A stretch of 27,940 nucleotides of DNA from a virus. The DNA lies in the IMG/VR virus record IMGVR_UViG_3300031787_000665, positions 1 to 27,940 of that record; one strand, given 5' to 3'. Position numbers and translations under genes: made by a program. Below the pieces are notes generated by a model. The model did not search any database and had not been told where the DNA came from. It saw only the letters and a list, made by a program, of their open reading frames with translations. How positions within the stretch are numbered: the stretch's first letter is position 1; every line of letters starts with the position of its first letter. Positions 122 to 22,390 of the stretch are shown piece after piece.

Positions 122-577
122 CTAGAGGTTTTCTGCTTCTTGCCTTGCTTGGGCCAAGAGAGTCATAACCTCGTCCTGCGAGCGAGCGTTGTTGATGCGA
201 GCGGCCCAGTCGACCGGAGGTTCGCTAGTCTGACCCGCCCTCTGTGCCTTCTGCAGTCTGTTCCAGGCGTTCTGTTCGGCCTGGACTTCCGGCTGCTTCT
301 GCTGAGATTGGATGAGATTTGCTTCTTCCAGCGCTGCCCGAATTGCTTCGGGTGTGAAGTCACCGTCGTAGCCCTTGATGAAGTACTTCGAAGCCGGGTG
401 GTCCATCGGGACTCCCGCCTTTACGAAGGCCAACTCTTTCTTGGCTGCTTCGGCTTCGGCTGCTGCTTGGCGCAGTGCCTTGACCTCTTCTTCCAGTTTT
501 CTCAGATGCGAGCGAACTGGATTCTTGGCTGACTGATCAACTGTCTCGTCTTCGAACGTGTCATCGACTTCCGACAT
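122..577 (-). CDS. Prohead scaffold protein (probable)
   Basis: The 151-aa protein has an acidic N-terminus (residues 1-15), an Ala/Glu/Lys heptad-type coiled coil at about 22-50 (KLEEEVKALRQAAAEAEAAK), a central segment GVPMDHPASKYFIKGYDGDF and a Gln/Ala-rich helical C-terminus. This small, charged, helical layout directly before the capsid gene is typical of scaffold proteins, which guide procapsid assembly and then leave. The start at 577 is preferred over an open frame reaching 634, because a strong AAGGAG lies 7 bases upstream of the 577 ATG. A promoter-like sequence at 694-722 precedes it, which would allow extra transcription of scaffold and capsid. No protease is visible in the window. 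Confidence 0.68.
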   Translation of the reverse strand: MSEVDDTFEDETVDQSAKNPVRSHLRKLEEEVKALRQAAAEAEAAKKELAFVKAGVPMDHPASKYFIKGYDGDFTPEAIRAALEEANLIQSQQKQPEVQAEQNAWNRLQKAQRAGQTSEPPVDWAARINNARSQDEVMTLLAQARQEAENL

Positions 578-693
578 GACCCACTCCTTCTGCCCACTCC
601 ACAGACGGAGGTCCTGTGAAGGCTGCAATCTCACCCTTGTGAACTGCTAAAGGCGGGGATTCTCTAGCAGGCTCCCTGTTCGGGATTGATTAG

Positions 694-726: not shown

Positions 727-1767
727 CTACTGCGCCATGCCCACGCCGGTCTCGCGTGAATACGAAGTGGCACCGGTCGTTGCGGTGAATCCACCGCCAG
801 CCTGAAATTCAGACAAGCGTCGACGCTGGCGCTGTAGCAACTGCTGCTCTGCTGCCGTATCGAATCCGAGTGCGGCTCCGACCTTCTGCTCGGTGGTCAG
901 TGCCTCTTCGCCAGCCATCTCCTGGTACAGACCACCAAGCGCACCAGCCGTCTGGAACGCCTGTTGTGCAGCCTCAGCGGTTATGCCGCGCTCCACGAGT
1001 TGTTCAGCCGTCTGTGCGGTGAGAGTGAATCCTGCCTGCTCCTGGGCACGCGCTGCGATGCGGGCGGCCTGAGCCTCACGCTGGATCAATGGGGTAGCCC
1101 GAGTTGGGTCAAGGAAGTAGGCAGCCAACTGCCCCTCGCTCACGTTGTAGAGGCGCTGCATCTGCTGCTTGACAGCAGGATCTGCCTCGGCAACAGCACG
1201 GTATCCATCCTGGATGCGAGCCTGAAGTTCAGCGGGGGACACGTCGTTTTCGATTAGCGCCTGGAAGTCCTCCTGCTGGTCATAGAAGCCAGTTGGCATT
1301 CCGTTGGCGCGCATGAGATCGCGGTACTGCTGCTCCAACTGGATGTAGGTGTCGGGCGTCAGGGCGGGCAAGCCCTTTGCTGCACGGCGTGTGTTGGCTG
1401 CAAAGCGGGTCTTGTACTCCTGAGTGTCACGCAGTTCGTACAGGATTGCGTCAGCGTCCTCGATACCGCGGGTGACGAGATCACGCAGACGCGTCTCCAT
1501 ACCAGGCATGCCAGCACGCGCTAGGAATGCCGACAGGCGGGCGAATGCGTCCTCGTTGAATGAGGGGGCGGCAGGCGTAGTGTCGCCATCTCCGGTGTCG
1601 TCTGGTGTCAGGTCGACGCCATAGAGCGGATCTCCCCACGGGCGACCGTACTGGTCCGGCGGCTGGTTGCCACGACCACCTTGACCAGCAGTGTCTCCTG
1701 GCCCGGGAAAGAAAACCTCGTCCGGCCTCGTGATGCCACCAAAGAAGTCTGCCCTTACGTCACTCAT
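727..1767 (-). CDS. Conserved-type phage structural protein of unknown function (346 aa)
   Basis: The product is a soluble 346-aa protein. Residues 1-65 are Gly/Pro/Asp-rich and probably disordered. From about 70 to 315 the chain is mainly helical and Ala/Gln/Glu-rich, with a Tyr/Phe-containing core (YIQLEQQYRDLMRANGMPTG, FYDQQEDFQALIENDVSPAE). The C-terminus is Gly/Thr/Ser-rich. The ATG at 1767 overlaps the previous stop by 4 bases, giving tight translational coupling. It is the last of a run of large unknown proteins between portal and scaffold, so a virion role (internal or minor head protein) is likely. I recognise the general type from other environmental phages but no function. No catalytic motif or membrane segment is evident. 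Confidence 0.8.
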   Translation of the reverse strand: MSDVRADFFGGITRPDEVFFPGPGDTAGQGGRGNQPPDQYGRPWGDPLYGVDLTPDDTGDGDTTPAAPSFNEDAFARLSAFLARAGMPGMETRLRDLVTRGIEDADAILYELRDTQEYKTRFAANTRRAAKGLPALTPDTYIQLEQQYRDLMRANGMPTGFYDQQEDFQALIENDVSPAELQARIQDGYRAVAEADPAVKQQMQRLYNVSEGQLAAYFLDPTRATPLIQREAQAARIAARAQEQAGFTLTAQTAEQLVERGITAEAAQQAFQTAGALGGLYQEMAGEEALTTEQKVGAALGFDTAAEQQLLQRQRRRLSEFQAGGGFTATTGATSYSRETGVGMAQ

Positions 1768-2795
1768 CGCACCATCCCAAATGCTTTCTCAAGACTCATG
1801 ATCGTGTTGCGAACCTGGTCGTTGGCGTTCTTCGTGAAGCGCCAGTTGTAGCGCGGGTCTTGCTTGATGCGCTGAGCCCACGCGAGGCCGGACATCGGTC
1901 GGCCATCGGGACCAGCATCAAGAGCGGCGGCAAACAATTCGTTGTCCAGTGTCACTTCTTGTGGGTTCAGTTCCAGGACCTTGGTGGCAATTTCTTTGTA
2001 GGGCTCAAATATGTCCTCGACCGTGAAGTCCTGGTCAAGCAAATCCGACAGGTGGTTGTACTTGGCCTTTGCGTATTGCTTGGCCTTCTTGATGAGCAGA
2101 TCCGAGGTCTGGGTAACGCCGTCCATGACCTGGCCACCGAGGGCAGCCTGGATGCGATCATTGATATCAGCGGGTGAGTAGCCGTATGCCTTGAGTGTGC
2201 GGCGCAGTTTGTCACCCTCAGTGGTCGTGGTGGCCACGGCACCAGCGCCACGCTCGCCCACCTTGTTGTAGGCCAGGTACTTGATCTCAAGATCGCTGGC
2301 CTTGTTCTGCTCGGCATAGAGGGCCAGGTCGGCAACCTCAGTCTCAGTCAGTTCAAGATCACCAAGTGCGGCAGCAAGGGTACGGCGGCGCTCACCAAGA
2401 CGCGCCTGCTGGTCGACGGGCTTGAGAACGTCCCACTCGATCCGGGCTTGCTTTGTCTTGTTGTAGTAATCCGTCGCCTGCACGCGGCCAGTGAATGCAG
2501 CCTGGCCAGCCTCGCTAGTGAAGTCAAAGCCGTCCGGGTTCTTGGCCACCTCAAGGAACAAGTCGATGAGTTGGTTGCCAAACACTGAGCGTGCTTGCTG
2601 CTCACCCTCTGCACCGTCGATCATCCCCGCCAGTTGCGGGAACTGCTGACGGAAGTAAGTGCGCCAGTCCTCGGACGATCCGCCCAGGTAGCGCTTGTCG
2701 TATTCAGCACTGAGTTTCTTTCGGTTGGCGGCGGTGTTTGCCATCCCACGCGCGGTGAGTTGCTCAGTTACGTAGGTGTCTTTGGTTACTGCCAT
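1764..2795 (-). CDS. Putative virion-associated protein, unknown function (343 aa)
   Basis: The start at ATG 2795 (MAVTKDTYV) lies just after the previous stop at 2800, with AGGGA close upstream. A longer frame to 2978 would overlap the preceding gene by about 180 bases, and its extra N-terminus is Arg/Leu-rich shadow sequence. The 343-aa product is charged, helical and soluble, without membrane segments or Cys pairs. Notable blocks are EYDKRYLGGSSEDWRTYFRQ near the N-terminus and LRRTLKAYGYSPADINDRIQ in the middle. It belongs to the portal-to-scaffold run of unknown proteins, each coupled to the next by overlaps or tiny gaps, which suggests assembly into one virion substructure. Confidence 0.78.
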   Translation of the reverse strand: MAVTKDTYVTEQLTARGMANTAANRKKLSAEYDKRYLGGSSEDWRTYFRQQFPQLAGMIDGAEGEQQARSVFGNQLIDLFLEVAKNPDGFDFTSEAGQAAFTGRVQATDYYNKTKQARIEWDVLKPVDQQARLGERRRTLAAALGDLELTETEVADLALYAEQNKASDLEIKYLAYNKVGERGAGAVATTTTEGDKLRRTLKAYGYSPADINDRIQAALGGQVMDGVTQTSDLLIKKAKQYAKAKYNHLSDLLDQDFTVEDIFEPYKEIATKVLELNPQEVTLDNELFAAALDAGPDGRPMSGLAWAQRIKQDPRYNWRFTKNANDQVRNTIMSLEKAFGMVR

Positions 2796-2799
2796 GTCC

Positions 2800-3603
2800 C
2801 TAACCCGCCAGTGCGCGGAATGCCAAGTTGATTGCTTGTCCGACAGAGTACGCGGCACGCTCGCCAGGGGCAGCCTGCTGAGCCTGAGCCTGAGCAAGTA
2901 CGGACGTAGACGGAGCCGTAGTGCCCCTGCCAGAAGCGGCACGTTCGGCATTCTGGATGTACTTGATGGCTTGGTCAACCTCGGCCTTTGTCGGCATCCG
3001 GCCCAAGTTTGACAGCGACGCTTGTTTCATGTAGTAAGCAATGTCTTCTTTCGGGGTCACCTTGACAGTCGTTCCACTTGAGACCGCGCTGTACTTCATA
3101 AGTTCGGGCAACATCGCACGAATCGTTTTCTGATTCACATTGGAGTCACGCATGAAGCGGAGCATCGCCGCCATGTCGGTTTCGTTGAATCCACTCTTGC
3201 GAATGATGGACTCACTTACGTCGGCTGACCCGTAATAGCCGACACGCTTGAGTTGCTGCGCGAACAGCAGGCGCTCATCTGCGGTCAGGTTCATCAACTC
3301 GGTGTTGGCGGACTCTGTGTCCAACTCGTATACGGGCCTGGCTATGTACCCCTCTTCATCGAGGAGGGCTGGGCCATTGAAGAACACCGCACCGGGGAGA
3401 CTTTGTGGAAGAACCTTGATGGCTTTATTGTCCAGGTCCTGCTTGATTCTCGCGGCCCAAGTTCCGGTGGTCCTAAAACCATTTGCCTTACGCGTCGGAT
3501 AGTTCACTGCCTCTTCGTATGTGGGCAGCGTTGAGGGGAACTGGGACGGATCAACAGGAGTCTCACGGGTTGTGTTCGGCGGTGTAGTTGTATCTTCAGC
3601 CAT
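2800..3603 (-). CDS. Putative virion-associated protein, unknown function (267 aa)
   Basis: The start is ATG 3603, which shares one base with the preceding stop (TAATG). An open frame reaching 3639 merely overlaps the giant gene. The protein begins with a disordered Thr/Pro-rich segment (residues 1-35) and continues with a mixed region containing TWAARIKQDL and LTADERLLFAQQLKRVGYYG. A helical C-terminal part includes YYMKQASLSNLGRMPTKAEV, a short pattern I have seen near the end of other phage structural proteins, and an Ala/Gln-rich tail follows. No enzyme motif is visible. Position and coupling suggest it is made with the 1744-aa protein and works with it. Confidence 0.78.
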   Translation of the reverse strand: MAEDTTTPPNTTRETPVDPSQFPSTLPTYEEAVNYPTRKANGFRTTGTWAARIKQDLDNKAIKVLPQSLPGAVFFNGPALLDEEGYIARPVYELDTESANTELMNLTADERLLFAQQLKRVGYYGSADVSESIIRKSGFNETDMAAMLRFMRDSNVNQKTIRAMLPELMKYSAVSSGTTVKVTPKEDIAYYMKQASLSNLGRMPTKAEVDQAIKYIQNAERAASGRGTTAPSTSVLAQAQAQQAAPGERAAYSVGQAINLAFRALAG

Positions 3604-6600
3604 TACAGTTCCACTTCCTGGGACAAGAAACGCGACCAAATTCTATCAAATTCCGGCTCGACGCTGGAAAGTGACTCACCCAACTGGAATAGATAGTCGC
3701 GATATGGAGCGGCTTTCTTGCTCTTCAGACTTCGCGCACCGATGCGGGACAGGGCCTGTTTGCGTGCATCCAAGTACTGCTTCACAATTGGTGTGATCTT
3801 GTTGCTCTGCAGGCGGGGATCATCGATTGCATCTTGTAGTTCAAGAATGCTGTTCTCAAACTTGTTGGTAGTAAACACGGGTAGCGCCGGGAATCCGGGC
3901 ATCAACTCATTCAGGTAAGTCCGGTATGCCCTGAGAACCTCTTGCTGCTTCTCGCTGGGGTTGGCACCAAACATCTGGCGCATCTGTCGGTACTTGACCG
4001 AACCAATGCGCAATTGTGCAAGATCCACCAATTCGCGGTCGGTGAGCCGCTTGCGCTTGCCCTGGTTCAGTTGGCGCTCCCACACCGAAAAGTTGTACTC
4101 AGCACCCATCGGTGCGAAGTAGGCACCGACGTTGCGGTACTGCTCGATAATTCCCTTGTTGTTGCGCTCCCAGACGCCGAACTCCTCGGTCGCCTCAATA
4201 CCGTCGGCCAGCGCCTGGCTCTTGGACGAAACGTACAAAGCAAGGTCGTCGCCGTAGAGATCCAGAAAGCGGTCGATGGAGGTGTCGTAGTTCTCCTGCT
4301 GGAACCGGCGCAGTTCCTCCAGGAGTACGCCGACGTACTGGTCGCCAACCTTGGTCGGCACCTTCCATTCCTGCGTACCAGCGGATGGTCCGAGGAACTG
4401 GGACACAGCCCTCATCATCGTCATGATCCTGGCCTTCTGCTTGGCATCAGCAAAGAGTTCGATACGGCCACTCTCGGTGCTGAGGTCGTACTTCGGATTC
4501 ACCGACAGCGAGCGCATTGTCTCAAGGTACGTCTGTGCGAACTGGGTGGTCATGTCCTCGGTATTAGCGGTGAACACATCCTTGAGTTTGCGTATCGTTC
4601 CGGGGATCAAGGACGAACCAAGTTCACCAATCGTTGTTTCTCCGTACGGGAGGAACATCTCCTTCAGCGAGTCATAGTTGGGGGTGTCTGGAACAAACTG
4701 GCTGAGTCCGAACTGTGCATAGGGTCCGAGCGCTGGCATGAAGTTGATGCCCTGCGACAAGCGCCCGAGCGGGGCCGACAGAGGGGCATCGATACCAGTC
4801 ATCAACTTGCTCAGCGATCCCGACAGCGGGAACTGGAACTGAACCTCATTGGTTGTCGGGTCGCGGAAGAATACGCCGCGTCCATCTTGATCCGGATCGG
4901 CTTCCTCAAGTCCGGTGTAGACGCGACCAAACTTACGCACAAGGTGGATGTTGTGCTGCGCGCCAAGGGTCATGTAGGTGCCGAGAACTTCTTTCCATGC
5001 GTCGGCAAAGGGCATCACGATGCGCAGGGCATCCACAATGTTGTTGCGGTCCGATGCGTCGTACAGGAGTTCCTTCGTCTTGCTAATGCCCATGAACCGC
5101 GAGTAGTCGTCGAGTTCTCCAACCGTCAGGGTGCCGGTTACATTCTTGCGATTCGGCAGACCCTCGATGATCTTCGTGATCTTTGTTCCACCGGTGATCT
5201 TTGATTCACCGATGTACTGGGCAATGGTTTGACCCTGTTCTTTAGCCTTAGCAGAAATATCTTTGTACAGCCGAACGCCCTCGTCATACGACAGGCGATC
5301 TGCGTTCTCTGCGATTGTCTCGTAGTAGAAGCCACGGTAAGTAACCGACCGCTCCAACTTGCGTACAGCCGGGTCGTTCAGCAGATTGAACAACCAGTCC
5401 GTAAGGGCGCGAGGAACAGCAGTTGAGTATTCGCGCCAGTCTGCGTTTGGACCCTCGGTGAGGATTTGCTCCGCCGGAATCTTGACTGGCAGTCCGCGAC
5501 CAGTCAGTTGGTCGTATTCAAACTCGCGACGCTCCAACAAGCGCTTGGCCTTGATCGAAGCATTGCCTGCGTCGTAAGAACGCAACGCATGCTCCTCTTC
5601 AATCGGGACGATCGTGGCCAGTGGGCGCGATGAGGTGGACTCATCAATCTGGGTGATGATGCTGCGCTCTTCACCGATCTCCACCTTGTCGCCAACGTTC
5701 CACTTCTTCTTTGTTCCGGTCAGCGGGATTTCATCGAGGAAGATTGTTTTGGCTGCCTTGAAGTTTGGAACTGCGTCGTAGGCCAAGAGGAACTGAATCT
5801 CGGGGATTCCTCCAGTCAACTTCTGGATGTCGTCGTACCAGACCGAGGTGACGTAGCCCCTGAGCAGGCCACGGACCTCATCTTCCCTGCCACTCTCAAG
5901 CAAACGCTTGAGGTTGATTGACGCAGAGATGTCGGAGTACTGGGTGTTCTGCTTGCGGAACTCAATGCCGTCGAAGAACTTCTGCTCAAGGTTGCGCCAG
6001 GACTGGCTGTTGCGGTTCTTCAGAAGCCAGTCAACAACCTTATTTACGGAGTCGTCAGCGGAATCTCCCGCAGCGATAGAACGTGCGAGGATGCGAGTCG
6101 GCTCAAGGGACTGCTTCATCTGCAACTGTTCAATCATTCCGCGGGTCCATCGCCCGCCACCATCTGCTTTGCTGAATGTGGGGAACGAACCGGTGCGGGT
6201 CTTGTGCCGGAGTTGGTCGGTCACCGTCATGCCGACGCGCTGGCCGTTTGCACCAAGGCTGCGCAGCAACTGCTCGTGGACTTCGCTCGCTGCGGTTACG
6301 TCGTCGAGATCAACGCCGTCGTCGATTGGGTAGAAGATGGGGCGGTTGGTGCGCTTTGAGTGGGCTGCCGCGCGACGACGACCGCTCAGTGTGTTCGGGA
6401 ATTCGCGCCCAGCAACGCGCAGTTTGTCGCCATCCTGACCACCAATGATTGGCTGAATGACGCCTTTTCTCGTTTGTCGCGCAACTCCAAGTTGCGACAT
6501 GTCAACACCCGTGATGCTCCGGCCATACTTCATGTTCTTGCCCGGCAGCCCGAAAGCGATGGAAATGTAGTCAAGCGGGTTTAGGTTGAACATTGATGCC

Positions 6601-8837
6601 GGTCCACCCATTGCCATGCGGATCTGGGCGTCGATGCCGTTGCGCACGATGTAGCCAATGGTCGCCAAGTTGAGAGGCTTCCAGATTCGTGACTGGATAA
6701 AGTCCGCCAATTCGATTGGTGCGCGGGCACGACCGGTCAGGGTCTTGACAACTTCCTTGTACTCAAACGATTCCAGTTCTCGGTTGAGTTCGTCAATCTG
6801 CATAATCGCAGACCGCTTGTTCTCGCCCTGCATTGACTTGGCGCGCTCACGGAGTTCTTTAATCTGGCCCTTGAGTTGCTTTGCCTTTTCCGGGTCGCGG
6901 TAGCGAGTGACCTCGCGCAGTTCTCTTCGGCCAGCAATCGGAAGTTTCTTCAGACCCTTGACCTCTCCGTCCGCACCGGTCTTGGTCAGCAACTTGTTGA
7001 ACAGCGGATTGCGAGTGACGCGCCTGAGTTCGCGGACATCGGGGAGAACCTGAACGCGGTTTAGCAACTGGATCAAGTCGGTCGGGCTGGCGAACACAAC
7101 GTCGTCACCCATCTGCCCTGCGCGCTCAAGGAATTCGGCGTACACCTTTGAGTCGGCGCTGTGCGCAAGTTGATACATGACTGTCTTGAGCAGTCCGTTG
7201 TCAGTCTCGATTCCCTGTCTGTCGCTGAGGTACGACTTGACCTGATCGATATTGCTACGGGCGCGGCGGAGGATCTCGTTTGCCGCTTCCTCCACGACAC
7301 CGTTGGCAACCATGATCTCGCGCACTGCTTCCTGGTATGACTCATACGCGCGGAATCGCTCGGTCTGGGTACCACCGCTGGTGAATGCCAAGAGGGCTTT
7401 GTTGCCCCACTGATTGATCTTCTCGGTCTTGACTCCGGCACTGCGCATTGAGTTGGCCATGTTGCGCACGGCATCAACGTTGTCTGCGTCATCAAGACCG
7501 GTGACGATGATCGTGTTCCTCGGCATCTGCGTGAAGAAGCGCATGTTCTGGACCATCAACTTGGCAGGGTTGCGGTCAACCTTGTATCTGCCGATGTTTG
7601 AGTTGAGGGTGTTTTCACCAAGGGTGAAGGGCTTGGTCAGCGCAGCAATAACCTCATCTTCGGTCTTTGCTTTGGACAGGTCGTATGCCGTGTCTGTGCT
7701 GATCTTGTAGCCGAAGGTGTCCTTCATGATCTTGAAGGCGTCTTCTTCTTCGCTCAGGTCCTTGACCAGTTTCTTAGCCCAAGAGTTGGTGCGCATGAAG
7801 TTCACGAACTTCTCGCCATCCATAGTCGGACCAGTGATCGTCTTGGCCATTCCAGCCTGAGACTTCAGATTGCCGCTGATGTTGCGCATTGCCCCTCTCA
7901 CGCTTTCTGCATCTTCGGCACTGAGTAGCGGGACAAGGCCCCGCATTCCACCACCAGACTTGATTGCATCCATGATGTCGTCGCCGGTAGCAAGTGCGCG
8001 TGCAGCACCCGGAAGAACGCGGCCAGCCGTATAGATACTCTTGGAGATGATCTTTGTAGGGTCAGGTACTGCCATCATGACAATGGCGTCGATGACTCCA
8101 GATCCGTACTTGTAGGCCATTGACTGCTCGCCAAAGATGGAGGTAAGTGCGCGGCCTGCGGTGAACGCGTTTCCGTAGACGGTGCCGCGGAAAGCACGCG
8201 CACGCTTTGCCTGCTCCTCTCGGAGTGTCTGGCTCATAAAGAATCCGTCGCCCTGGTCGTCCGGATTGTCAAGCATTGTTGCCAGTGACGTTGACTCCCA
8301 CAACCCCATCAAGTCCATGTTCGAAGATCCAAAGATCATCGACAGTGAGTTCTGGACTGTTTCCGGGATGATGTCGAGAGTTGCCGTGGACCAGCGGATG
8401 GCTGGCTTGATGGCGGTGTCCATCACCTCGGTCGTGACTTGCCTAATCGGATCGAGCACATACTTGATTGCACCGCTAGCGCTCTTGGGGATGGTGTATT
8501 CGGCAACCTTGTTTGCCGTCTTGGCCATGTACCCAACAGCATCAAAGGCCCATCGCAAGGGTCCGGGCATATTGCCAACGGCGTTTACCTTCTGGTCGTA
8601 AGACTGCGCTTCTCGCTGTGCTGCATACTGCGCGGCAAGGTCAACAGCGTCGTCGGAAGCCTCAGCCTTAGCAAGAGCAACGACGGTTTCCGGAGCAAGC
8701 CACGGGCTGCGCTGAGCAATCTGCTGCGCGCGCTGTGCCTGCCAGTAGCCCATCGGTGTAACCGAAGCCATTGGCTTTGCAGAATCCGCAATGGCGACCT
8801 GCTCTTCAGTTGTGAACAGATTGTTCTTGTCGACCAT
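3603..8837 (-). CDS. Giant putative internal or ejected virion protein (1744 aa)
   Basis: The largest gene of the window starts at ATG 8837, sharing one base with the previous stop (TAATG). The N-terminal 330 residues contain several amphipathic or weakly hydrophobic stretches (around SGAIKYVLDPIRQVTTEVMD and YGSGVIDAIVMMAVPDPTKI). A charged coiled coil lies near residues 640-690 (KQLKGQIKELRERAK), and a moderately hydrophobic segment near 715-750 (WKPLNLATIGYIVRNGIDAQ). The C-terminal third is largely helical and charged. I see no convincing catalytic motif. Length, position two genes after the portal and membrane-active-looking segments recall ejected internal proteins such as gp16 of T7-like phages, or phage-borne large polyvalent proteins. 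This comparison is by layout only, not by recognised homology. Confidence 0.85.
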   Translation of the reverse strand: MVDKNNLFTTEEQVAIADSAKPMASVTPMGYWQAQRAQQIAQRSPWLAPETVVALAKAEASDDAVDLAAQYAAQREAQSYDQKVNAVGNMPGPLRWAFDAVGYMAKTANKVAEYTIPKSASGAIKYVLDPIRQVTTEVMDTAIKPAIRWSTATLDIIPETVQNSLSMIFGSSNMDLMGLWESTSLATMLDNPDDQGDGFFMSQTLREEQAKRARAFRGTVYGNAFTAGRALTSIFGEQSMAYKYGSGVIDAIVMMAVPDPTKIISKSIYTAGRVLPGAARALATGDDIMDAIKSGGGMRGLVPLLSAEDAESVRGAMRNISGNLKSQAGMAKTITGPTMDGEKFVNFMRTNSWAKKLVKDLSEEEDAFKIMKDTFGYKISTDTAYDLSKAKTEDEVIAALTKPFTLGENTLNSNIGRYKVDRNPAKLMVQNMRFFTQMPRNTIIVTGLDDADNVDAVRNMANSMRSAGVKTEKINQWGNKALLAFTSGGTQTERFRAYESYQEAVREIMVANGVVEEAANEILRRARSNIDQVKSYLSDRQGIETDNGLLKTVMYQLAHSADSKVYAEFLERAGQMGDDVVFASPTDLIQLLNRVQVLPDVRELRRVTRNPLFNKLLTKTGADGEVKGLKKLPIAGRRELREVTRYRDPEKAKQLKGQIKELRERAKSMQGENKRSAIMQIDELNRELESFEYKEVVKTLTGRARAPIELADFIQSRIWKPLNLATIGYIVRNGIDAQIRMAMGGPASMFNLNPLDYISIAFGLPGKNMKYGRSITGVDMSQLGVARQTRKGVIQPIIGGQDGDKLRVAGREFPNTLSGRRRAAAHSKRTNRPIFYPIDDGVDLDDVTAASEVHEQLLRSLGANGQRVGMTVTDQLRHKTRTGSFPTFSKADGGGRWTRGMIEQLQMKQSLEPTRILARSIAAGDSADDSVNKVVDWLLKNRNSQSWRNLEQKFFDGIEFRKQNTQYSDISASINLKRLLESGREDEVRGLLRGYVTSVWYDDIQKLTGGIPEIQFLLAYDAVPNFKAAKTIFLDEIPLTGTKKKWNVGDKVEIGEERSIITQIDESTSSRPLATIVPIEEEHALRSYDAGNASIKAKRLLERREFEYDQLTGRGLPVKIPAEQILTEGPNADWREYSTAVPRALTDWLFNLLNDPAVRKLERSVTYRGFYYETIAENADRLSYDEGVRLYKDISAKAKEQGQTIAQYIGESKITGGTKITKIIEGLPNRKNVTGTLTVGELDDYSRFMGISKTKELLYDASDRNNIVDALRIVMPFADAWKEVLGTYMTLGAQHNIHLVRKFGRVYTGLEEADPDQDGRGVFFRDPTTNEVQFQFPLSGSLSKLMTGIDAPLSAPLGRLSQGINFMPALGPYAQFGLSQFVPDTPNYDSLKEMFLPYGETTIGELGSSLIPGTIRKLKDVFTANTEDMTTQFAQTYLETMRSLSVNPKYDLSTESGRIELFADAKQKARIMTMMRAVSQFLGPSAGTQEWKVPTKVGDQYVGVLLEELRRFQQENYDTSIDRFLDLYGDDLALYVSSKSQALADGIEATEEFGVWERNNKGIIEQYRNVGAYFAPMGAEYNFSVWERQLNQGKRKRLTDRELVDLAQLRIGSVKYRQMRQMFGANPSEKQQEVLRAYRTYLNELMPGFPALPVFTTNKFENSILELQDAIDDPRLQSNKITPIVKQYLDARKQALSRIGARSLKSKKAAPYRDYLFQLGESLSSVEPEFDRIWSRFLSQEVEL

Positions 8838-9223
8838 TACATCCCGTACCTAGAAAGCAGATCCTCCAGATCGTCGCTCGGGAAATACTGGGCGATCATG
8901 CGAAGTTCCTCAAGTGCCTGGCCGCGCGGGTTGTACATGGGAATGCCTGCTTCGACGGGACCCATGCCAGCACCGAATGGCGCTCCTGCAGTAATCGGCT
9001 CGTCAGGACGACCAGTTGGTGCGGTGATGGGCGTAGGCGGCTTTGGCGCAGTCTTTGACTGACGAGATGCAGCGACATCCGTCGGTGCTGATCCCATCGG
9101 GACAACAGCCTGCGATGCCATCTGTTGTCCGGCTTTGCCGTATGTTTGACCAGGTGCAGCCTGGCGCGCAATCTTCTGTGCCGGGTTGTTCAGGTCAACC
9201 CGGTTTCCTTTCGCTTCTGCCAT
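8837..9223 (-). CDS. Small protein between portal and giant gene, unknown function (128 aa)
   Basis: The 128-aa protein starts at ATG 9223, immediately after the portal stop (TAAATG). Residues 1-75 are Ala/Gln/Pro-rich and look disordered (SQAVVPMGSAPTDVAASRQS). A Gly/Pro/Met segment with TGRPDEPITAGAPFGAGMGP follows, and a short amphipathic helix ends the chain (EELRMIAQYFPSDDLEDLLS). Small proteins of this composition follow the portal gene in other actinophage-type genomes, to my recollection. A role as portal partner, neck linker or head-internal peptide is inference only. Confidence 0.72.
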   Translation of the reverse strand: MAEAKGNRVDLNNPAQKIARQAAPGQTYGKAGQQMASQAVVPMGSAPTDVAASRQSKTAPKPPTPITAPTGRPDEPITAGAPFGAGMGPVEAGIPMYNPRGQALEELRMIAQYFPSDDLEDLLSRYGM

Positions 9224-10981
9224 TTATATCCCCAGTTGCGCCAGTAGTTGATCGATTCCAGGCTCTCCAGCAGGCGGCGCAACCGGCGCTTCAGCGCCCA
9301 TGCCGGGCATTGCTAGGCCAGGCATTGTCTCTGGTGAACCCATTGGCATTGCCATCGCCTGTCTGTCTTGTGCTCTTTGATTCGTTCTGCGTACTGCTTC
9401 ATACAGCGTAACGTCCTGCTCAAGCACCAACTTGGCAAGGTACGCGAGATCTTCAGGCTGGTACGGTCCGTTAGGGTTGACTGCCTGCTCCTGGATGGAT
9501 GACAGCAGCGCTGCCTCGACGCCTTCCGCAATGATGCGGTCGTGCTCAAGTTCCGGATCGTCGATGAGCGGATCTGCCTCGCGTGCGGACTCCTTGCTGA
9601 TCATGCCGGTGCCCAAACGCTGGCCCAAACCAACGATGAGGCTGTTCACGTCAGAACCGGCAGCCGAGTACGACACGTAGTGGAAGTCGGTCTGGAAGAT
9701 CTTCTCCGGAACGTATGTCTCTTGGCCCACCGAACTGCGCGACGGGATGAAGAATGACTTCTCGACGTTGCCCCAGTACGCGCGCTCGATGGCGATGGCA
9801 ATCTTGTCTTCCTCGACGAGCGACTGCTCAAAGATGTGCTGTGCTTCTTGGACGCGGAAGTCCACAGTTGCGGACAGTACGTTTTCGCCACGGCGACCGG
9901 TGCGGATGTTGGTGGCTGACTCGCCACCGAACTCTGCCGGGATTGCACCTTCCAGGCGCTCCTGGCGCTCTAAGCGATCAAGTGCCGTGTCGGTCTTGTA
10001 GCCAGGGTTCAATTGCAACTGCTGGATGTCGCCACCTTTGACGACGCCAAGGACGCCAGATTTGCCGTCCGCCAACTGCAGAATCTCCGGCTGCTCACCT
10101 GTACGCGCAACGAGGTATTCCTCGGGGAAGATGCCGCGCTCGATGGCGATCTCGGTCAGCGCCTGCAAGCGTGCACGCGTGTAGTACATGCCAAGCACAC
10201 CGTCGAACTGACCGCGCGGCTTGTCCAGCGTGATGCGGTTGGCAACTACGGCAAGCGGGCGGCCAGTCCGGTTGGGAATTTCCTCAAGCGTCATGGCCTC
10301 CAGGCCAACGCGCTCAGCGGAATTGAGTTCTGGATTGTCTTCGGCACCAAGAACCAACAACTGGATGGTGTCTGCATCAACGTACTCAAGCATCGTGTAC
10401 TTGGAGTCCGCATCAACGCGGCCCATGCGCAGTACGCCAGACACCATGTCGCCGTAGTTCGACAACAACCAAGAAGCCGTAGCCTTGTACGTGAAGATGC
10501 AGTTCTCCGGAAGCATGTCGTCCGGATCGTCAACTGGCGCAGCGTAGGTATCGAGCGGATTGCGCACAACCCAACGCGGGTTGAGCGTGCGAAAGTCCGG
10601 GCGCAGCATGACCGTGCTCTGCGAATAGGCGAGCAGGTGGCGAGCACGACGACGAAGTTTCATCTTCATCTTGTTCTCGTCCCACATTGCGATCATGGCG
10701 CGGCGACGCGTGCGCGCGTATGACTTTGCTCGCTCGCTGCCCTCCTTGACGGGCGGGAAGTACGGCGTCGGCATCGTGGATGAGACGCGCATCGACATCT
10801 GATCGAGGCCCTGCACGAGAAGGTTGGCAACCGAAGCCTTAGCGTTCTTGTCCAGTTCGTTCAGCGGGATGATGATCTCGCCGTTAGCCATGTCGCGGAC
10901 GCGGCGCATCTGCTCATGGATAGGACCCATCGCCAGACGGCGCTGGTTATAAAGTTCAACAACTTCTTCTGTTGATGGCAC
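9224..10981 (-). CDS. Portal protein
   Basis: The 585-aa product has the size and layout of a tailed-phage portal: a charged helical N-terminus (EELYNQRR-type helix, then MRRVRDMANGEIIIPLNELD), a mixed alpha/beta middle (NPLDTYAAPVDDPDDMLPEN, GRPLAVVANRITLDKPRGQF), a long C-terminal helical segment (VQEAQHIFEQSLVEEDKIAI) and a Met/Pro/Gly/Ala-rich tail. Portals form the dodecameric DNA gate of the capsid and dock the terminase. It is encoded two genes after the large terminase, the usual neighbourhood. Translation begins at a GTG directly after the preceding TAA. The call rests on architecture and context rather than a diagnostic short motif. Confidence 0.8.
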   Translation of the reverse strand: MPSTEEVVELYNQRRLAMGPIHEQMRRVRDMANGEIIIPLNELDKNAKASVANLLVQGLDQMSMRVSSTMPTPYFPPVKEGSERAKSYARTRRRAMIAMWDENKMKMKLRRRARHLLAYSQSTVMLRPDFRTLNPRWVVRNPLDTYAAPVDDPDDMLPENCIFTYKATASWLLSNYGDMVSGVLRMGRVDADSKYTMLEYVDADTIQLLVLGAEDNPELNSAERVGLEAMTLEEIPNRTGRPLAVVANRITLDKPRGQFDGVLGMYYTRARLQALTEIAIERGIFPEEYLVARTGEQPEILQLADGKSGVLGVVKGGDIQQLQLNPGYKTDTALDRLERQERLEGAIPAEFGGESATNIRTGRRGENVLSATVDFRVQEAQHIFEQSLVEEDKIAIAIERAYWGNVEKSFFIPSRSSVGQETYVPEKIFQTDFHYVSYSAAGSDVNSLIVGLGQRLGTGMISKESAREADPLIDDPELEHDRIIAEGVEAALLSSIQEQAVNPNGPYQPEDLAYLAKLVLEQDVTLYEAVRRTNQRAQDRQAMAMPMGSPETMPGLAMPGMGAEAPVAPPAGEPGIDQLLAQLGI

Positions 10982-13144
10982 TTAGATGCCCTTCCAGACG
11001 CCCTTGGTCTGACGCAGTTCTTTGACCTCTTTGGCAATCTTGCGCTTCTGCTTGTTGGCCTTCTTCTTGGTTTCGGCCTTGATCTGTTCGCGCATTCCGC
11101 CAGTGACGCGCATCATGCCAGCCTCTTCACCACTGACAGGAGCCATCATTTCCTTGATTGCCGACTCAAGGTCACCAGTGCGACCAGCGCGACGCTCAGC
11201 GAGGTTGAATTGACGGCGGCTCATGTTCGGGAACTTTTCTTTGAAGTATTCGAACTGTCCGGCAGAAACTTCTCTTGGTGATTCGCGCGGTCCAATGATG
11301 TCCGTCGTGCGCTCGGAGTGGGTCCTGGGAGGTTCAACCTCTCCGGTGTAGCGCTTTACTTGGTTCTTCTTGGCCGTGAAGAACTCGTCCTCTGCCTTGC
11401 TGAAAAGACGCTCTGCTCGCTCCTTGGGGAGACTCTTGCTGGAAATCGGGATCTCGGTGACCGTGGATGTCTTGATCTTTGCGGGACCAACGACATTGAT
11501 GTCTTTGCCGCCCACGGTCTGAACACTCAGTCCACTGCGTGACTTGACCTCTCCAACCGTCTTTGGTCCAGTCGAAGCCTTAGTCTTGATTTCAACGGGC
11601 TTCTTTGCTGGCTCAACCTTGGCTACGGGTGCCGTCTTTTGCTTGGGTGCCTTCTTCTGCGTGGGTGCTTTCTTCTTAGTGGGCGCAGCGGTTGTCTCAG
11701 GGATGTAGCCCTGTGACTTGAGGCGCTCGCTGAGCGAACCAGTAATGCGACCTTCGCCGCTCATGGCGACGCCTGTGCCCTCGTAGTCCTCTACCGCGGC
11801 AAGATCTGATTCGCGCACTTCAACGGTACGCGGCTTGGGCTCTTCATTGACAACTGAAGCCTTCTTCTTGGGCTGGTTCTTTTTGGCTGGAGCGGCTTTT
11901 ACTGATGTAGCGGGTTTGACAACTTCTTTGGTTTCAATAACTTTTGACTTGGAAAGACGCGACCTACCCTGGGCTGCGCTTTCCTTGTTCATCCATTCCC
12001 AGTTCTGGGGATGGCCGGGGTCCTCGATGTCAATAACTTGGCCAGATTGCACGTTCTTGGTTCGTGTGGTCTTGGTCGAAGTCTTTACCTCGGCAACAGG
12101 AGCAGCGGTCGTCTTGGCCTTTGTCTTAGTGCTTGCCTTGCTGCCGCGAGTTCGTGTTCCAGCACGCGTCTTGGGGGCAGTTTTTTCTGCTTCCCTGACA
12201 ACGTTTGTCAAGCCGCGCATTTCGGCTTCGACCATTTCTACGCTGTCAATTTTTCCTTTTCCAATTGGGCGATTGCCGGTGCCCCTTGCGCGGATGGTAT
12301 TGAGGGCACCGCTGCGCTCGGCCTGGAGCAGGGACTGGCGAATCGTCTGGTTCCTGGCGATGTTGCTGGCGGTGTACTGGGCACCCTGTCTGACGACCGA
12401 CGGGAGGATGCGGCTTTCTCCAGCGCGGATAAGCGCACGCTTGGCGGCACTGGAGAGAACGGCTCCGCCTGTCGCGCCAGTGGCGATACCAATGCCAACG
12501 TCAGCAGTGTTGATTGCGGCTTCTTTGAATCCACTCTGCGGGAGTGGCTTGAACTTCTGCTTGCCCTGAACACCACCAAGAACGTCGGCAATCCGTCCGG
12601 CAAGGTTGATGGTGGGGCTAATGAACGTGCGTCCGTAAGACTTGAACTGCTCGACGGTCCCACGACCAGTGGCAGCAAGATCTTTCTTGAGCGCTGAGAC
12701 GTTGGTCGGCAGTGCGTACGAGCCGCTGCCAAGATACGTCGGGCCAGAAGTCTTCTTCTGTGTCGTGGTCTGCGTGGTTGTCTTGGGCTTGACTGGACCC
12801 ATGTTGCCCATGCCGCGACGCGCCTGCATGCGCTGCGACTCGGTGTCGCGCATCTGTGGTGAGTAGAGGCTGCTGCCTGTGCTGCTGATGTCCCCACTGG
12901 CGCGGCTGGGCAGGTTCTGCGCGAGGCGCTGCTTGAACTCCTTGCGCTGCTCCGGCGTTGCCTGCGATAGAACTTTTTGTGCAATCGTGGTGCGACCCTC
13001 TTTTGTCTGCGCCAACTTGGCAAACCGATTGCGCAATTGTTCACGCTGGTCGGGTGTCATTTCCTCAAAGCCCTTTTCCTGGGCACGCGCCTGCACAAAC
13101 TGGCGTTGAGCGCGCTGGTAGGGGTTCTTCTTTTTCTGCGCCAT
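10982..13144 (-). CDS. Lys/Ala/Thr-rich basic protein, putative virion or DNA-packing protein (720 aa)
   Basis: The start is ATG 13144 (MAQKKKNPYQRAQRQF), 13 bases after the terminase stop. A frame to 13237 would overlap the terminase gene with shadow sequence. Residues 1-110 are Gln/Arg/Lys-rich helices. Residues about 190-250 contain a Gly/Ala-rich, weakly hydrophobic patch (VGIGIATGATGGAVLSSAAK). Residues about 310-560 are strongly enriched in Lys, Ala, Pro and Thr (KTKAKTTAAPVAEVKTSTKT, PTKKKAPTQKKAPKQKTAPV) and resemble histone-H1-like tails, and the last 60 residues are basic and helical. There is no recognised domain. Lying between terminase and portal, it may be packaged with the DNA or ejected, but this is inference. 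No Shine-Dalgarno sequence is visible. Confidence 0.78.
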   Translation of the reverse strand: MAQKKKNPYQRAQRQFVQARAQEKGFEEMTPDQREQLRNRFAKLAQTKEGRTTIAQKVLSQATPEQRKEFKQRLAQNLPSRASGDISSTGSSLYSPQMRDTESQRMQARRGMGNMGPVKPKTTTQTTTQKKTSGPTYLGSGSYALPTNVSALKKDLAATGRGTVEQFKSYGRTFISPTINLAGRIADVLGGVQGKQKFKPLPQSGFKEAAINTADVGIGIATGATGGAVLSSAAKRALIRAGESRILPSVVRQGAQYTASNIARNQTIRQSLLQAERSGALNTIRARGTGNRPIGKGKIDSVEMVEAEMRGLTNVVREAEKTAPKTRAGTRTRGSKASTKTKAKTTAAPVAEVKTSTKTTRTKNVQSGQVIDIEDPGHPQNWEWMNKESAAQGRSRLSKSKVIETKEVVKPATSVKAAPAKKNQPKKKASVVNEEPKPRTVEVRESDLAAVEDYEGTGVAMSGEGRITGSLSERLKSQGYIPETTAAPTKKKAPTQKKAPKQKTAPVAKVEPAKKPVEIKTKASTGPKTVGEVKSRSGLSVQTVGGKDINVVGPAKIKTSTVTEIPISSKSLPKERAERLFSKAEDEFFTAKKNQVKRYTGEVEPPRTHSERTTDIIGPRESPREVSAGQFEYFKEKFPNMSRRQFNLAERRAGRTGDLESAIKEMMAPVSGEEAGMMRVTGGMREQIKAETKKKANKQKRKIAKEVKELRQTKGVWKGI

Positions 13145-13157
13145 CAGTGAAACTGTA

Positions 13158-15116
13158 TCATGCGCCAATCCAGGACGGACGCCACAAACGGGGCGGACTC
13201 CTGAACGGCGCGAGTTGCGGAATGTGCAATTCGGCAAACCAGTGGGCCATCACCAAGTCTGTCCCGTTCTTCTTGCCGCGGGTCCACGAAGTCATCTCGT
13301 CGACGAACGCCATCGTCTTCCAGTTGTCACGCATACTGGGCAGACGTACCGCGCCCGTGCGCCAGAGCGGAGGAAGGAGGGCCTCGACGCCGAGTTCCTC
13401 GTCCATCTTGTTGCGGCCAGTTGTGTGGCCGATGATCTCCACACCATGTAGCGCCCGCCACTTGCGCACAAAGTCGTGGGCGAGGAGAAAGCGCTGGGCG
13501 GCGTTAACCTCTACTACCCAATGGGAGATGGGGTAGTTCATGAGGACGGATCGGTTCTGCCAGTCCTCCATGATCCCCGAGTACTCGCGGTAACTGGTGT
13601 CGTAGCCGAGCAGTTCTTCAGCCGTAAGTTTCACTCTCTCAATGTCGACCAGGTAGCGCAGGTTCGTGTGCGGCTGGAACAGCCACCACTGGATCGCCCA
13701 GAACATGGTCGGGCTCGGGTCAACCGTCGCAATGGAGATGATCGTCCCGTCAAGATCGGGCGGTGGGTACCCAGGTCGCCTGTCAACGTCAATACACCCC
13801 GGATACTCAAAGCCATCCGGTCCGATGCCGCCGGTAGCCCAAGCACGTTCAATGAGGTACGCGCCCTCAGCCATGTTCTCCTGTTGGTACACGATCTTGA
13901 ACTTGCTGGGGGAGTTGTACTTGATGTAGGAGAGGTCCTTCCAAGAGAGGCGGAAGGGCTCAAGAAGCGGGCCTTCTGGCCATGGCGCAGAAGTAGTGCG
14001 CCGCGAATCTGGACCGCTATCAAGTTCCTCGTAGTATGCCTTGTACACGAGGTGGTCGTACTTATGTTTTTTCAGTGGCTCACGTACTTCTTCATTGCCC
14101 TGAACGTCGCTGCCGTCGTAGTCATCGGGGTCTTCTTCGTACGTAATCTTGGACAGACAGTGCGCGTAGAGATCGTTGGGTCCGAGTCTCTGCCCGATGA
14201 CGGCAAGCACTCCACCTGGGTCGACACGCGCCTCCGCCATGGAGTCCCAACGTTCCAAGAGTTTATCTCGTGCTGCAGACTCTTTGGAATTTTCTGGGCT
14301 TGCAACGTCGTCGAACAAGCAGAGGTCCGCGCGGTGTCCGATGAATTCGGACTCGATACCGTAAGCAGAGACGGTTGGTTCCTTGTTGTCGAGCCCCGCG
14401 GAACCGTACTGCTCAACAATAAACTCCTCGGCCCGCCAAAGAGCCCCAACATGGGTTGGCTTGAATCGTCCGTAATCCAGGGCGAGGCAGGCTTCGGCAT
14501 TGAGGGCGAGCCCCCGTTTGATCATCTCGGGATCGGGTTGAAGCGGCGAGGTGCGCTCTAGGGTCTCGCGGATACGGCGCGAGTACATCTTGGCCAGGGT
14601 CTGGGAGATCGACCCGATCATGACGCGGATCGACCGGTTCCGCACGATGCACCATACGGCTACGTCATGGAACAGGGTGGACTTACCAGCACCCGGCGGG
14701 CAGTTCAGGACCAGGAACTCCTTGTCATTGGAGTACAACTTGTCCACGATCTTGTAGGCCGCATCGACCTGCCAGGGGCTGGGCACGCGGCCCAGGTAGA
14801 CCCGGCGGAAGTAGTCAAAGTCCTCCAGCCCGCGCTGGGCCCGGGGAGATAGACGGCCCGAGGGGATGACCGGGGGCACGTCCTTTTGGACCTGGAGGTC
14901 CTTGGCCAGCATCTTGCCGCCGTCTGGCTTTGAGGCCATCAGGTTCTGCAGGTCCCGCTCGGCAGCCGTAGCCTTTGCCTTGGCCACCCATTTGGTAGCC
15001 GAAGAGTACGAGATGCCAGCAATACGCGCAGCCTCGCGCATGGTCATCCCGGATTGCATGGACTGCCAGAACAGTGCCCTGTCCTCAGTCGCTACCGAAC
15101 GTCGCCCCTTAGCCAT
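13158..15116 (-). CDS. terL: Terminase large subunit with N-terminal helix-turn-helix
   Basis: The 652-aa protein pumps DNA into the procapsid and cuts it. Residues 12-45 look like a helix-turn-helix (ALFWQSMQSGMTMREAARIA, GISYSSATKWV), a DNA-binding role often held by a separate small subunit. The ATPase has Walker A NCPPGAGKST (138-147) and Walker B LCLFDDV (265-271). The RNase-H-like nuclease half shows likely metal ligands at D466 (SIATVDPSP), E536 (WVVEVNAAQ) and D620 (NGTDLVMAHW). No distinct small subunit is evident, so the fused HTH or the small basic protein upstream (15217-15507) may replace it. A long inverted repeat (15139-15199) stands just upstream. The ATG lacks a clear ribosome binding site. 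Confidence 0.95.
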   Translation of the reverse strand: MAKGRRSVATEDRALFWQSMQSGMTMREAARIAGISYSSATKWVAKAKATAAERDLQNLMASKPDGGKMLAKDLQVQKDVPPVIPSGRLSPRAQRGLEDFDYFRRVYLGRVPSPWQVDAAYKIVDKLYSNDKEFLVLNCPPGAGKSTLFHDVAVWCIVRNRSIRVMIGSISQTLAKMYSRRIRETLERTSPLQPDPEMIKRGLALNAEACLALDYGRFKPTHVGALWRAEEFIVEQYGSAGLDNKEPTVSAYGIESEFIGHRADLCLFDDVASPENSKESAARDKLLERWDSMAEARVDPGGVLAVIGQRLGPNDLYAHCLSKITYEEDPDDYDGSDVQGNEEVREPLKKHKYDHLVYKAYYEELDSGPDSRRTTSAPWPEGPLLEPFRLSWKDLSYIKYNSPSKFKIVYQQENMAEGAYLIERAWATGGIGPDGFEYPGCIDVDRRPGYPPPDLDGTIISIATVDPSPTMFWAIQWWLFQPHTNLRYLVDIERVKLTAEELLGYDTSYREYSGIMEDWQNRSVLMNYPISHWVVEVNAAQRFLLAHDFVRKWRALHGVEIIGHTTGRNKMDEELGVEALLPPLWRTGAVRLPSMRDNWKTMAFVDEMTSWTRGKKNGTDLVMAHWFAELHIPQLAPFRSPPRLWRPSWIGA

Positions 15117-21429: not shown

Positions 21430-21614
21430 AGTTCCCTTCCTTGGCTAATGGCTATTTGTAAACGCTCCACCATGCTGTTCAGCGTGGCTACGTGTCCCTC
21501 TAGTTCCGCAATGCGTCGCTTGAGTTCGTCCTTGTCATCACGCAATGCCTCGATGGTGATCTGCTGCTCAGCGCACCACGATTGGTAGGTGATTAGATCA
21601 GGGTTTGAAGTCAT
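21426..21614 (-). CDS. Coiled-coil mini-protein (62 aa)
   Basis: ATG 21614 follows CGGAGGAAA and overlaps the WhiB gene by 17 bases. Residues 18-58 form an almost continuous heptad coiled coil (IEALRDDKDELKRRIAELEG, then HVATLNSMVERLQIAIS), so the protein probably dimerises or binds another helical protein. No other domain is seen. Confidence 0.75.
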   Translation of the reverse strand: MTSNPDLITYQSWCAEQQITIEALRDDKDELKRRIAELEGHVATLNSMVERLQIAISQGREL

Positions 21615-21876
21615 TGATTATTTCCTCCGGTGTTCGGCGTCGTTCTTCTGGTGTCAGCCCACCCCAGATGCCATGGTTGATCCCATTGACAATGGCGAAG
21701 CGCATGCACTCCTTGTAGACCGGACACTTGTAACAGTATTGCTTGGCCTTCTGCACGGAGAAGCGATTGCCACCACGCTCCGGATGGAACACGCTGGTGT
21801 CCACGCCCTTGCAGGCAGCATCGTCCATCCACTTGAAGTTGCGCTCAAGCAGCGCGTACTCACCCAGCAGTTGCAT
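21598..21876 (-). CDS. WhiB-family iron-sulfur transcription factor
   Basis: The 92-aa protein has the four-cysteine pattern of WhiB proteins, which bind a [4Fe-4S] cluster and contact the principal sigma factor: C22 (WMDDAACKG), then C48, C51 and C57 (YCYKCPVYKEC), followed by the WhiB turn GIWGG at 69-73 and a basic segment PEERRRTPEE. ATG 21876 is chosen because GGAAAG lies 9 bases upstream and overlap with the lysozyme-like gene is then 17 bases. An ATG at 21933 would add a basic KKRRK tail but overlap by 74 bases. Phage WhiB proteins such as that of TM4 down-regulate host division genes and affect superinfection. Confidence 0.93.
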   Translation of the reverse strand: MQLLGEYALLERNFKWMDDAACKGVDTSVFHPERGGNRFSVQKAKQYCYKCPVYKECMRFAIVNGINHGIWGGLTPEERRRTPEEIINDFKP

Positions 21877-22390
21877 GTACGTGTACTTTCCAGGGGCGCC
21901 AGCCGTTTTGCGACGCTTCTTCGGAGTAGTCATACAGGGCCTTAGCCGCCTTCAGGTTGACGAGGGGGTCGAACAACTCCGCACATCCCACGTTATCGAG
22001 CACACCCACCGCCTGCAAGTACCCCTGCGGGTACCACCGAGTGGGCAGGCACCATGACCTGTCGTTGATCTGCATCAGCCCGATGTCAGTCGAGCCGTCA
22101 GCATTCAGGGTCTTGTTGTGCGCGCTGGCCTGGCACCGGGACTCACGCCACATCACGTAGTCCAGGGTCAGCATGCTGTCGGCATGCCAGCCAGCCTCCC
22201 CCGCCAGGGCCTGCCACTCAGGGCAGTGCAGGTTCAGGGGTGGGGTTGTGGTGGTCGTGGTAGCGGTAGCCGACCACGTTCTAGCCCAGCCGTAGGGCTT
22301 GGGTTCTGGGGTCGACAATGGGTCCCCCCTGAAGCCAAGCACTGCGAGGCTGGCGGATGCGACGGCCATCAGCCGGACAATCCAATCCAT
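21860..22390 (-). CDS. Secreted lysozyme/transglycosylase-like muralytic protein
   Basis: ATG 22390 follows a good GGAGGAA. Residues 1-20 form a hydrophobic N-terminus (VRLMAVASASLAVLGF) that could be a signal peptide or anchor. A Thr-rich linker (about 41-50) comes next, and a lysozyme-like domain covers 54-176. The probable catalytic Glu is E83 in MWRESRC, and GLMQINDRSW at 104-113 is the usual second motif of this fold. Cys 56, 86, 114 and one near 135 may form disulfides, which fits export. It cleaves peptidoglycan glycan strands. It is encoded among recombination and regulatory genes, far from the M15 endolysin, and its end is overlapped by WhiB. A role in entry, exclusion or cell-wall remodelling is possible. 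Confidence 0.85.
   Translation of the reverse strand: MDWIVRLMAVASASLAVLGFRGDPLSTPEPKPYGWARTWSATATTTTTTPPLNLHCPEWQALAGEAGWHADSMLTLDYVMWRESRCQASAHNKTLNADGSTDIGLMQINDRSWCLPTRWYPQGYLQAVGVLDNVGCAELFDPLVNLKAAKALYDYSEEASQNGWRPWKVHVHATAG

What the first reader, a model, noticed from the sequence alone, without database searches (positions are those of the whole stretch)
3603..8837. 1744-residue protein without recognisable function after the portal
The gene takes up nearly a fifth of the window. Weakly hydrophobic and amphipathic N-terminal segments, a coiled coil near 640-690 and long helical regions resemble ejected internal proteins, but no enzymatic motif is visible. Its one-base overlaps with both neighbours tie it to virion assembly.
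Basis: inference. Interest (0 to 1): 0.6.

Follow-up and report, generated by a model that had tools for sequence, protein, structure and literature searches.

The report
Probable giant DNA-injection protein of actinophages
This is a real, conserved 1744-residue protein of a virus that infects actinobacteria; it is always encoded just behind the DNA-entry (portal) gene and is most likely packed inside the particle and pushed into the bacterium ahead of the DNA, although no experiment has yet shown this.

Summary
The ORF is real: window 3603-8837, minus strand, 1744 aa, with TAATG one-base overlaps at both ends. Fifty-two IMG/VR loci encode relatives. Of these, 46 are intact and full length (1617-1743 aa), and none was found in 84,980 prokaryote genomes. 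Gene order is invariant: portal, ~125 aa, this protein, ~270 aa, ~340-560 aa, ~350 aa, scaffold-like, major capsid.

No Pfam, NCBIfam, PHROGs or PDB sequence profile matches it. Profile-profile alignment shows it is a remote relative of gp09 of cultured Streptomyces podoviruses (Beephvirinae; hhalign E 6e-13), annotated 'hypothetical protein'. Head and tail genes are shared with those phages, and relatives lack a tape-measure-sized tail gene, so the phage is probably short-tailed. WhiB genes in the window and 17 of 23 relatives point to an actinobacterial host.

Predicted structure is low-confidence and mainly helical, with no transmembrane segment and no recognised enzyme. In Beephvirinae, proteins two and three genes downstream carry cell-wall hydrolase domains; the window's single counterpart does not. 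Best reading: internal virion (ejection) protein, analogous in role to T7 gp15/gp16 without detectable homology (about 0.6). MuF was tested and not met. Ejection proteins are reported missing from phi29-like podophages of Gram-positive hosts, hence the interest.

The parts
3603..8837 (-). The 1744-aa protein, remote homologue of Beephvirinae gp09 (phrog_10618 family); proposed ejection/internal virion protein
   Evidence: 46 full-length viral homologues; hhalign to gp09 E 6e-13, score 126.6, shuffled nulls 24.5 or less; Foldseek BFVD match to the Manuel protein, E 8e-8
8837..9223 (-). 128-aa protein directly upstream (phrog_8200; equivalent of Immanuel3 gp07)
   Evidence: present in 25 of 26 compared loci
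9224..10981 (-). Portal protein, 585 aa
   Evidence: phrog_104, E 1.4e-16; conserved position
2800..3603 (-). 267-aa protein directly downstream (ATG at 3603); equivalent of gp10 (phrog_13037, weak)
   Evidence: E 0.005; 26 of 26 loci
1764..2795 (-). 343-aa protein (start MAVTKD..), related to the C-terminal part of gp11/gp12; no hydrolase domain here
   Evidence: phrog_34303 E 1.9e-64, phrog_6654 E 7e-12; gp11 has NlpC/P60 and gp12 has SLT at the N terminus
727..1767 (-). 346-aa protein, equivalent of gp13 (phrog_8424)
   Evidence: E 1.1e-68
122..634 (-). 170-aa protein in the scaffold position (phrog_7813), just before the major capsid gene in relatives
   Evidence: E 2.9e-33; order
13158..15116 (-). 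Terminase large subunit, first gene of the head module
   Evidence: phrog_38 E 3e-65
21601..21933 (-). WhiB-like regulator, evidence for an actinobacterial host
   Evidence: PF02467 E 1.9e-20; E 3e-22

Best explanation
The protein is an internal virion (ejection) protein of a short-tailed actinobacteriophage. SHOWN: the gene is intact and under purifying selection; it always lies between the portal plus ~125-aa pair and three further module proteins, the scaffold-like gene and the capsid gene; it is homologous to gp09 of cultured Streptomyces podoviruses; it is predicted (low confidence) to be mainly helical with no transmembrane segment and no recognised enzyme; proteins two and three genes downstream carry peptidoglycan-hydrolase domains in the cultured relatives. 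INFERRED: it is built into a core on the inner face of the portal during procapsid assembly; on adsorption it unfolds enough to pass the portal and short tail with its smaller partners; it re-forms in the cell wall and membrane as a conduit or anchor that lets the DNA into the cytoplasm.
For: Invariant gene order in up to 26 loci and in cultured Beephvirinae. Homology to gp09 over the C-terminal ~620 residues with a weaker collinear N-terminal match. gp11 and gp12, two and three genes downstream in those phages, carry NlpC/P60 and SLT domains fused to a shared domain (phrog_6654) of which the window has one copy. Shared major capsid (phrog_1357) and tail (phrog_7578, phrog_11667) families with Beephvirinae; the Beephvirinae member Abafar has a 16 nm tail by TEM (PMC11536984), and no tape-measure-sized gene besides this one is seen in the three longest genomes examined, apart from a 1014-aa gene downstream of the capsid in one of them. 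Long helical model, no transmembrane segment, no enzyme family. Ejection proteins elsewhere are clustered, helical, and mostly recognised by size and synteny rather than sequence (PMC8954989).
Against: No virion proteomics or ejection data for any member. No sequence match to any solved ejection protein. The models are low confidence (pLDDT 64 and 62, pTM 0.40 and 0.35), so a cryptic enzyme or another fold is not excluded. The location between portal and capsid genes differs from T7 and P22, where ejection genes follow the tail genes (own knowledge). In the window's own clade the associated hydrolase domains are missing from the module.
Confidence: 0.6

Rival explanations
1. It is an internal head protein that stays in the capsid: a portal-core or assembly chaperone that shapes DNA packaging and is not ejected.
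For: It sits between portal and scaffold genes, inside the assembly module. Beephvirinae hosts are monoderm, and ejection proteins are reported missing from phi29-like podophages of Gram-positive bacteria (PMC8954989).
Against: The module also holds peptidoglycan hydrolases in Beephvirinae, which suggests delivery to the wall. 1744 residues is very large for a chaperone.
Confidence: 0.17
2. It is a MuF-position or polyvalent-type carrier: an injected protein whose variable middle region carries anti-host or anti-defence activities.
For: It has the position typical of MuF proteins. The middle region (about 785-1130) is variable. The distant relative L072 has a stretch there that by eye resembles an ADP-ribosyltransferase.
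Against: No Phage_Mu_F domain in 20 records while the control genomes ring. No effector domain found in the window's protein. The ADP-ribosyltransferase likeness found no profile support.
Confidence: 0.12
3. It is a tail or tail-hub structural protein.
For: Very long helical proteins are often tape measures; weak Foldseek rows include tape measure proteins, none significant.
Against: The position is before the capsid gene. Tail families lie downstream of the capsid and are shared with podoviruses.
Confidence: 0.06
4. It is a virion-borne enzyme, such as a diverged virion RNA polymerase, too diverged for profiles to detect.
For: Giant ejected proteins of N4-like phages are RNA polymerases. The most conserved region here (about 1250-1640, including D-P-D-x-D-G-R-G) is partly modelled poorly.
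Against: No polymerase profile matches. The model is almost all helical. The D-x-D-G-R motif is not kept in Beephvirinae, which have D-x-D-G-N, or in L031.
Confidence: 0.05

Closest known systems
gp09 of Streptomyces phages Immanuel3 and FlowerPower, gp10 of Manuel and WRightOn (Beephvirinae; phrog_10618)
   Same: Same relative position after the portal, similar size (about 1635-1648 aa against 1744), collinear homology (hhalign E 6e-13), same neighbouring families, capsid and tail families shared
   Different: About 20-25% identity where alignable; not detected by direct HMM search of PHROGs; the Beephvirinae module has two hydrolase-bearing phrog_6654 proteins, several extra small genes before gp09, and a tRNA array before the scaffold
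T7 gp14/gp15/gp16 ejection proteins
   Same: Clustered large helical proteins of short-tailed phages; a hydrolase belongs to the module in the cultured relatives (in T7 it is part of gp16)
   Different: No detectable sequence relation; larger than T7 gp16 (1318 aa); located between portal and capsid genes; actinobacterial host
N4/DEV ejection complex with virion RNA polymerase
   Same: A giant protein ejected together with smaller partners
   Different: No polymerase profile or conserved polymerase motifs found
MuF minor head proteins
   Same: Gene position between portal and scaffold/capsid
   Different: No Phage_Mu_F domain

Membership tests
Beephvirinae gp09 family (phrog_10618) | Sequence homology | tested here: met
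   hhalign Prob 97.9, E 6e-13, score 126.6 against shuffled nulls of 24.5 or less; blastp E 2e-7 between members; a direct hmmscan against PHROGs did not list phrog_10618, so it is a remote member
Beephvirinae gp09 family (phrog_10618) | Same genomic position and partner families | tested here: met
Podoviral ejection (internal virion) proteins, T7 gp14-16 type | Present in the virion and expelled with the DNA | not testable with these tools
   Needs proteomics of full and emptied virions; none found in the literature searched
Podoviral ejection (internal virion) proteins, T7 gp14-16 type | Clustered with further internal proteins in the structural operon | tested here: met
   Portal, p128, this protein, p267, p343, p346, scaffold-like in the compared loci that reach far enough; that the partners are internal proteins is itself inferred
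Podoviral ejection (internal virion) proteins, T7 gp14-16 type | Short-tailed phage | tested here: inconclusive
   Inferred from tail and capsid families shared with Beephvirinae, Abafar TEM (PMC11536984) and lack of a tape-measure-like gene; the tail region is missing from the window itself
Podoviral ejection (internal virion) proteins, T7 gp14-16 type | Homology or shared fold with a known ejection protein | tested here: inconclusive
   No PDB sequence match; fold searches with low-confidence models gave only Z under 7
Podoviral ejection (internal virion) proteins, T7 gp14-16 type | Peptidoglycan hydrolase within the module | tested here: inconclusive
   NlpC/P60 and SLT on gp11 and gp12 of Beephvirinae, but not in the window clade
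MuF-type minor head proteins | Phage_Mu_F domain (PF04233) | tested here: not met
   0 of 20 records, controls ring
Polyvalent proteins (LPD domains) | LPD or enzymatic domains | tested here: inconclusive
   No Pfam domain; LPD38 searched in 7 relatives with no match, but its control did not ring
Virion RNA polymerase | Polymerase motifs and palm fold | tested here: inconclusive
   No family match; the helical model is low confidence

The most novel reading that the evidence does not exclude
Short-tailed phages of single-membrane actinobacteria carry their own ejection complex, built around a 1600-1750-residue protein with no detectable sequence relation to the T7, P22 or N4 proteins, and use it to cross a thick cell wall rather than a periplasm.
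Probability: 0.45. Interest if true: 0.6.

Novelty: new variant of a known kind. Interest (0 to 1): 0.42.

Why it matters
[quoted passage not shown] This family places a candidate ejection module in podoviruses of actinobacteria and ties uncultured relatives to Streptomyces phages that can be grown, so how short-tailed phages get DNA through an actinobacterial wall becomes directly testable. It also gives a working annotation to the largest gene of these phages, now 'hypothetical protein'.

Tried and rejected
Pfam, PHROGs and NCBIfam scans of the protein: only chance-level rows. tblastn of this protein and two relatives against 50,697 phage records: no match; the link to Beephvirinae came through neighbours and profiles. 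PDB profile searches: only designed helical repeats and chance rows. Structural matches: Z under 7 and limited to generic helix pairs and a small beta domain resembling the insert-in-flap domain of SlyD/SlpA (residues ~1023-1082, Z 6.5, 52 residues), not trusted. LPD38 search: no match, control silent. Calcium-loop idea (D1314-x-D-x-D-G, kept in nearly all 47 aligned sequences): partly lost in Beephvirinae and absent in L031, so not used. ADP-ribosyltransferase likeness in L072: no profile support. MuF: rejected. Search for relatives in bacterial genomes: none.

Full report
THE OBSERVATION. The frame at 3603-8837 is open on the minus strand for 1744 residues. The finding did not name the strand. 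Both junctions with neighbours read TAATG, a one-base overlap. The gene is not an accident of composition. IMG/VR holds 52 loci encoding relatives, of which 46 are complete, without internal stops, and 1617-1743 residues long; 25 of these remain after removing near-duplicates at 90% identity. dN/dS against the nearest relative is about 0.2, with dS near saturation. None of 84,980 prokaryote genomes encodes a relative by that search, so the family looks purely viral.

GENOMIC SETTING. All genes of the module run on the same strand: terminase, a 720-aa Lys/Ala/Thr-rich protein, portal, 128 aa, the 1744-aa protein, 267 aa, 343 aa, 346 aa and a scaffold-like gene. In 26 compared loci the order portal, p128, big protein, p267, p343, p346, scaffold holds wherever the contig reaches, apart from one p128 call that was missed. 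The major capsid gene follows in longer relatives. The same order is found in cultured Streptomyces phages of Beephvirinae, with extra small genes between portal and gp09, two phrog_6654 proteins instead of one, and a tRNA array. PHROGs families link p128, p343, p346, scaffold and portal of the window with gp07, gp11/gp12, gp13, gp62 and gp03 of Immanuel3. Capsid and two tail families of the relatives are also shared with Immanuel3.

HOMOLOGY. No family library names the protein, and tblastn against phage records is empty. Pairwise blastp between family members and Beephvirinae gp09 reaches E 2e-7. With 47 sequences on one side and 23 on the other, hhalign gives Prob 97.9, E 6e-13 and score 126.6 over residues 1118-1739 against gp09 959-1592. 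There is a second, weaker collinear match at 238-401 against 202-326 (E 0.003; 6e-4 when the N-terminal parts are compared alone). Ten column-shuffled controls score 24.5 or less. Foldseek of the C-terminal model against BFVD lists the Manuel protein at E 8e-8. A third lineage (L031/L072) aligns over residues 210-1498 at E 1e-29 and has a portal-like gene and a 147-aa gene directly upstream.

HOST AND MORPHOLOGY. The window encodes a WhiB-like regulator (21601-21933). WhiB is found in 19 of 25 records searched, namely the window, 17 of 23 environmental relatives and FlowerPower; among 14 control genomes only Corynebacterium rings. WhiB proteins are confined to actinobacteria and their phages (established knowledge), so the host is very likely actinobacterial. 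Short-tailed form is inferred, not shown: tail and capsid families are shared with Beephvirinae, a member of that subfamily (Abafar) has a 16 nm tail (PMC11536984), and the three longest genomes examined show no tape-measure-like gene; one has a 1014-aa gene after the capsid gene, at a place where relatives have variable 251-412-aa genes and Beephvirinae a minor tail protein.

ANATOMY. AlphaFold2 with 26 sequences gives low-confidence models (1-790: pLDDT 64; 545-1744: pLDDT 62). They are mainly helical, with a helical hairpin at 638-700 and a small beta domain near 1023-1082. There is no transmembrane helix. The most conserved parts are about 201-250, 701-750 and 1250-1640; 101-150 and 801-850 vary most. 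PDB comparisons by sequence and structure give nothing above generic level.

FUNCTION. Ejection proteins of podophages are encoded in clusters, are helical, refold on ejection, and are mostly recognised by size and synteny (PMC8954989). The present protein fits that description. In Beephvirinae, gp11 and gp12, two and three genes downstream of gp09, carry NlpC/P60 and SLT hydrolase domains, which makes a wall-crossing role for the module likely there. The window's clade lacks these domains in its single counterpart, so its wall-opening enzyme, if any, must come from elsewhere. MuF is excluded by the domain test. A retained portal-core protein, an injected effector carrier, a tail protein and an unrecognised enzyme remain as rivals in that order. 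Virion presence and ejection are the untested steps.

NOVELTY. The protein is a new remote member of an unannotated family already in PHROGs (phrog_10618). As a functional class it would be a new variant of podoviral ejection proteins, in phages of actinobacteria. The claim is inferential, but cultured relatives make it easy to test.

Noticed in passing
window 10985-13144 (-): 720-aa basic Lys/Ala/Thr-rich protein between terminase and portal (net charge +67), found only in the window's subclade and some relatives, length about 359-1006 aa at that position; no family match.
   Followed up: partly
L072 10001-14317, residues about 880-990 of the protein: The distant homologue has in its variable middle region a stretch (LRLFRGE...NWTHSYDFAKRFAGPDGKVL) that by eye resembles an ADP-ribosyltransferase; no profile confirmed it.
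   Followed up: partly
window 17289-19402 (-): MoxR-type AAA ATPase (18659-19402, AAA_5 E 3e-16) next to a 457-aa protein that looks like a VWA-type partner by eye, as in chaperone-like MoxR/VWA pairs.
   Followed up: no
window 21863-22390 and 26595-27146 (-): Two free-standing wall enzymes, a lysozyme-like SLT_3 protein with an apparent signal peptide and a VanY-type D-Ala-D-Ala carboxypeptidase, probably lysis or entry enzymes.
   Followed up: partly
window about 4857-4898 (-), residues 1314-1327 of the protein: D-x-D-x-D-G loop followed by R-G-F-F/Y-Y-x-D-P, nearly invariant in 47 family members, candidate metal-binding loop or beta hairpin; changed in Beephvirinae and absent in L031.
   Followed up: partly
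window 1764-2795 (-) and relatives L032, L039, L047, L057, L059: The gp11/gp12 counterpart has a long N-terminal extension (498-563 aa in total) in one clade and none in the window's clade, while Beephvirinae have hydrolases at that place: module swapping at one N terminus.
   Followed up: partly
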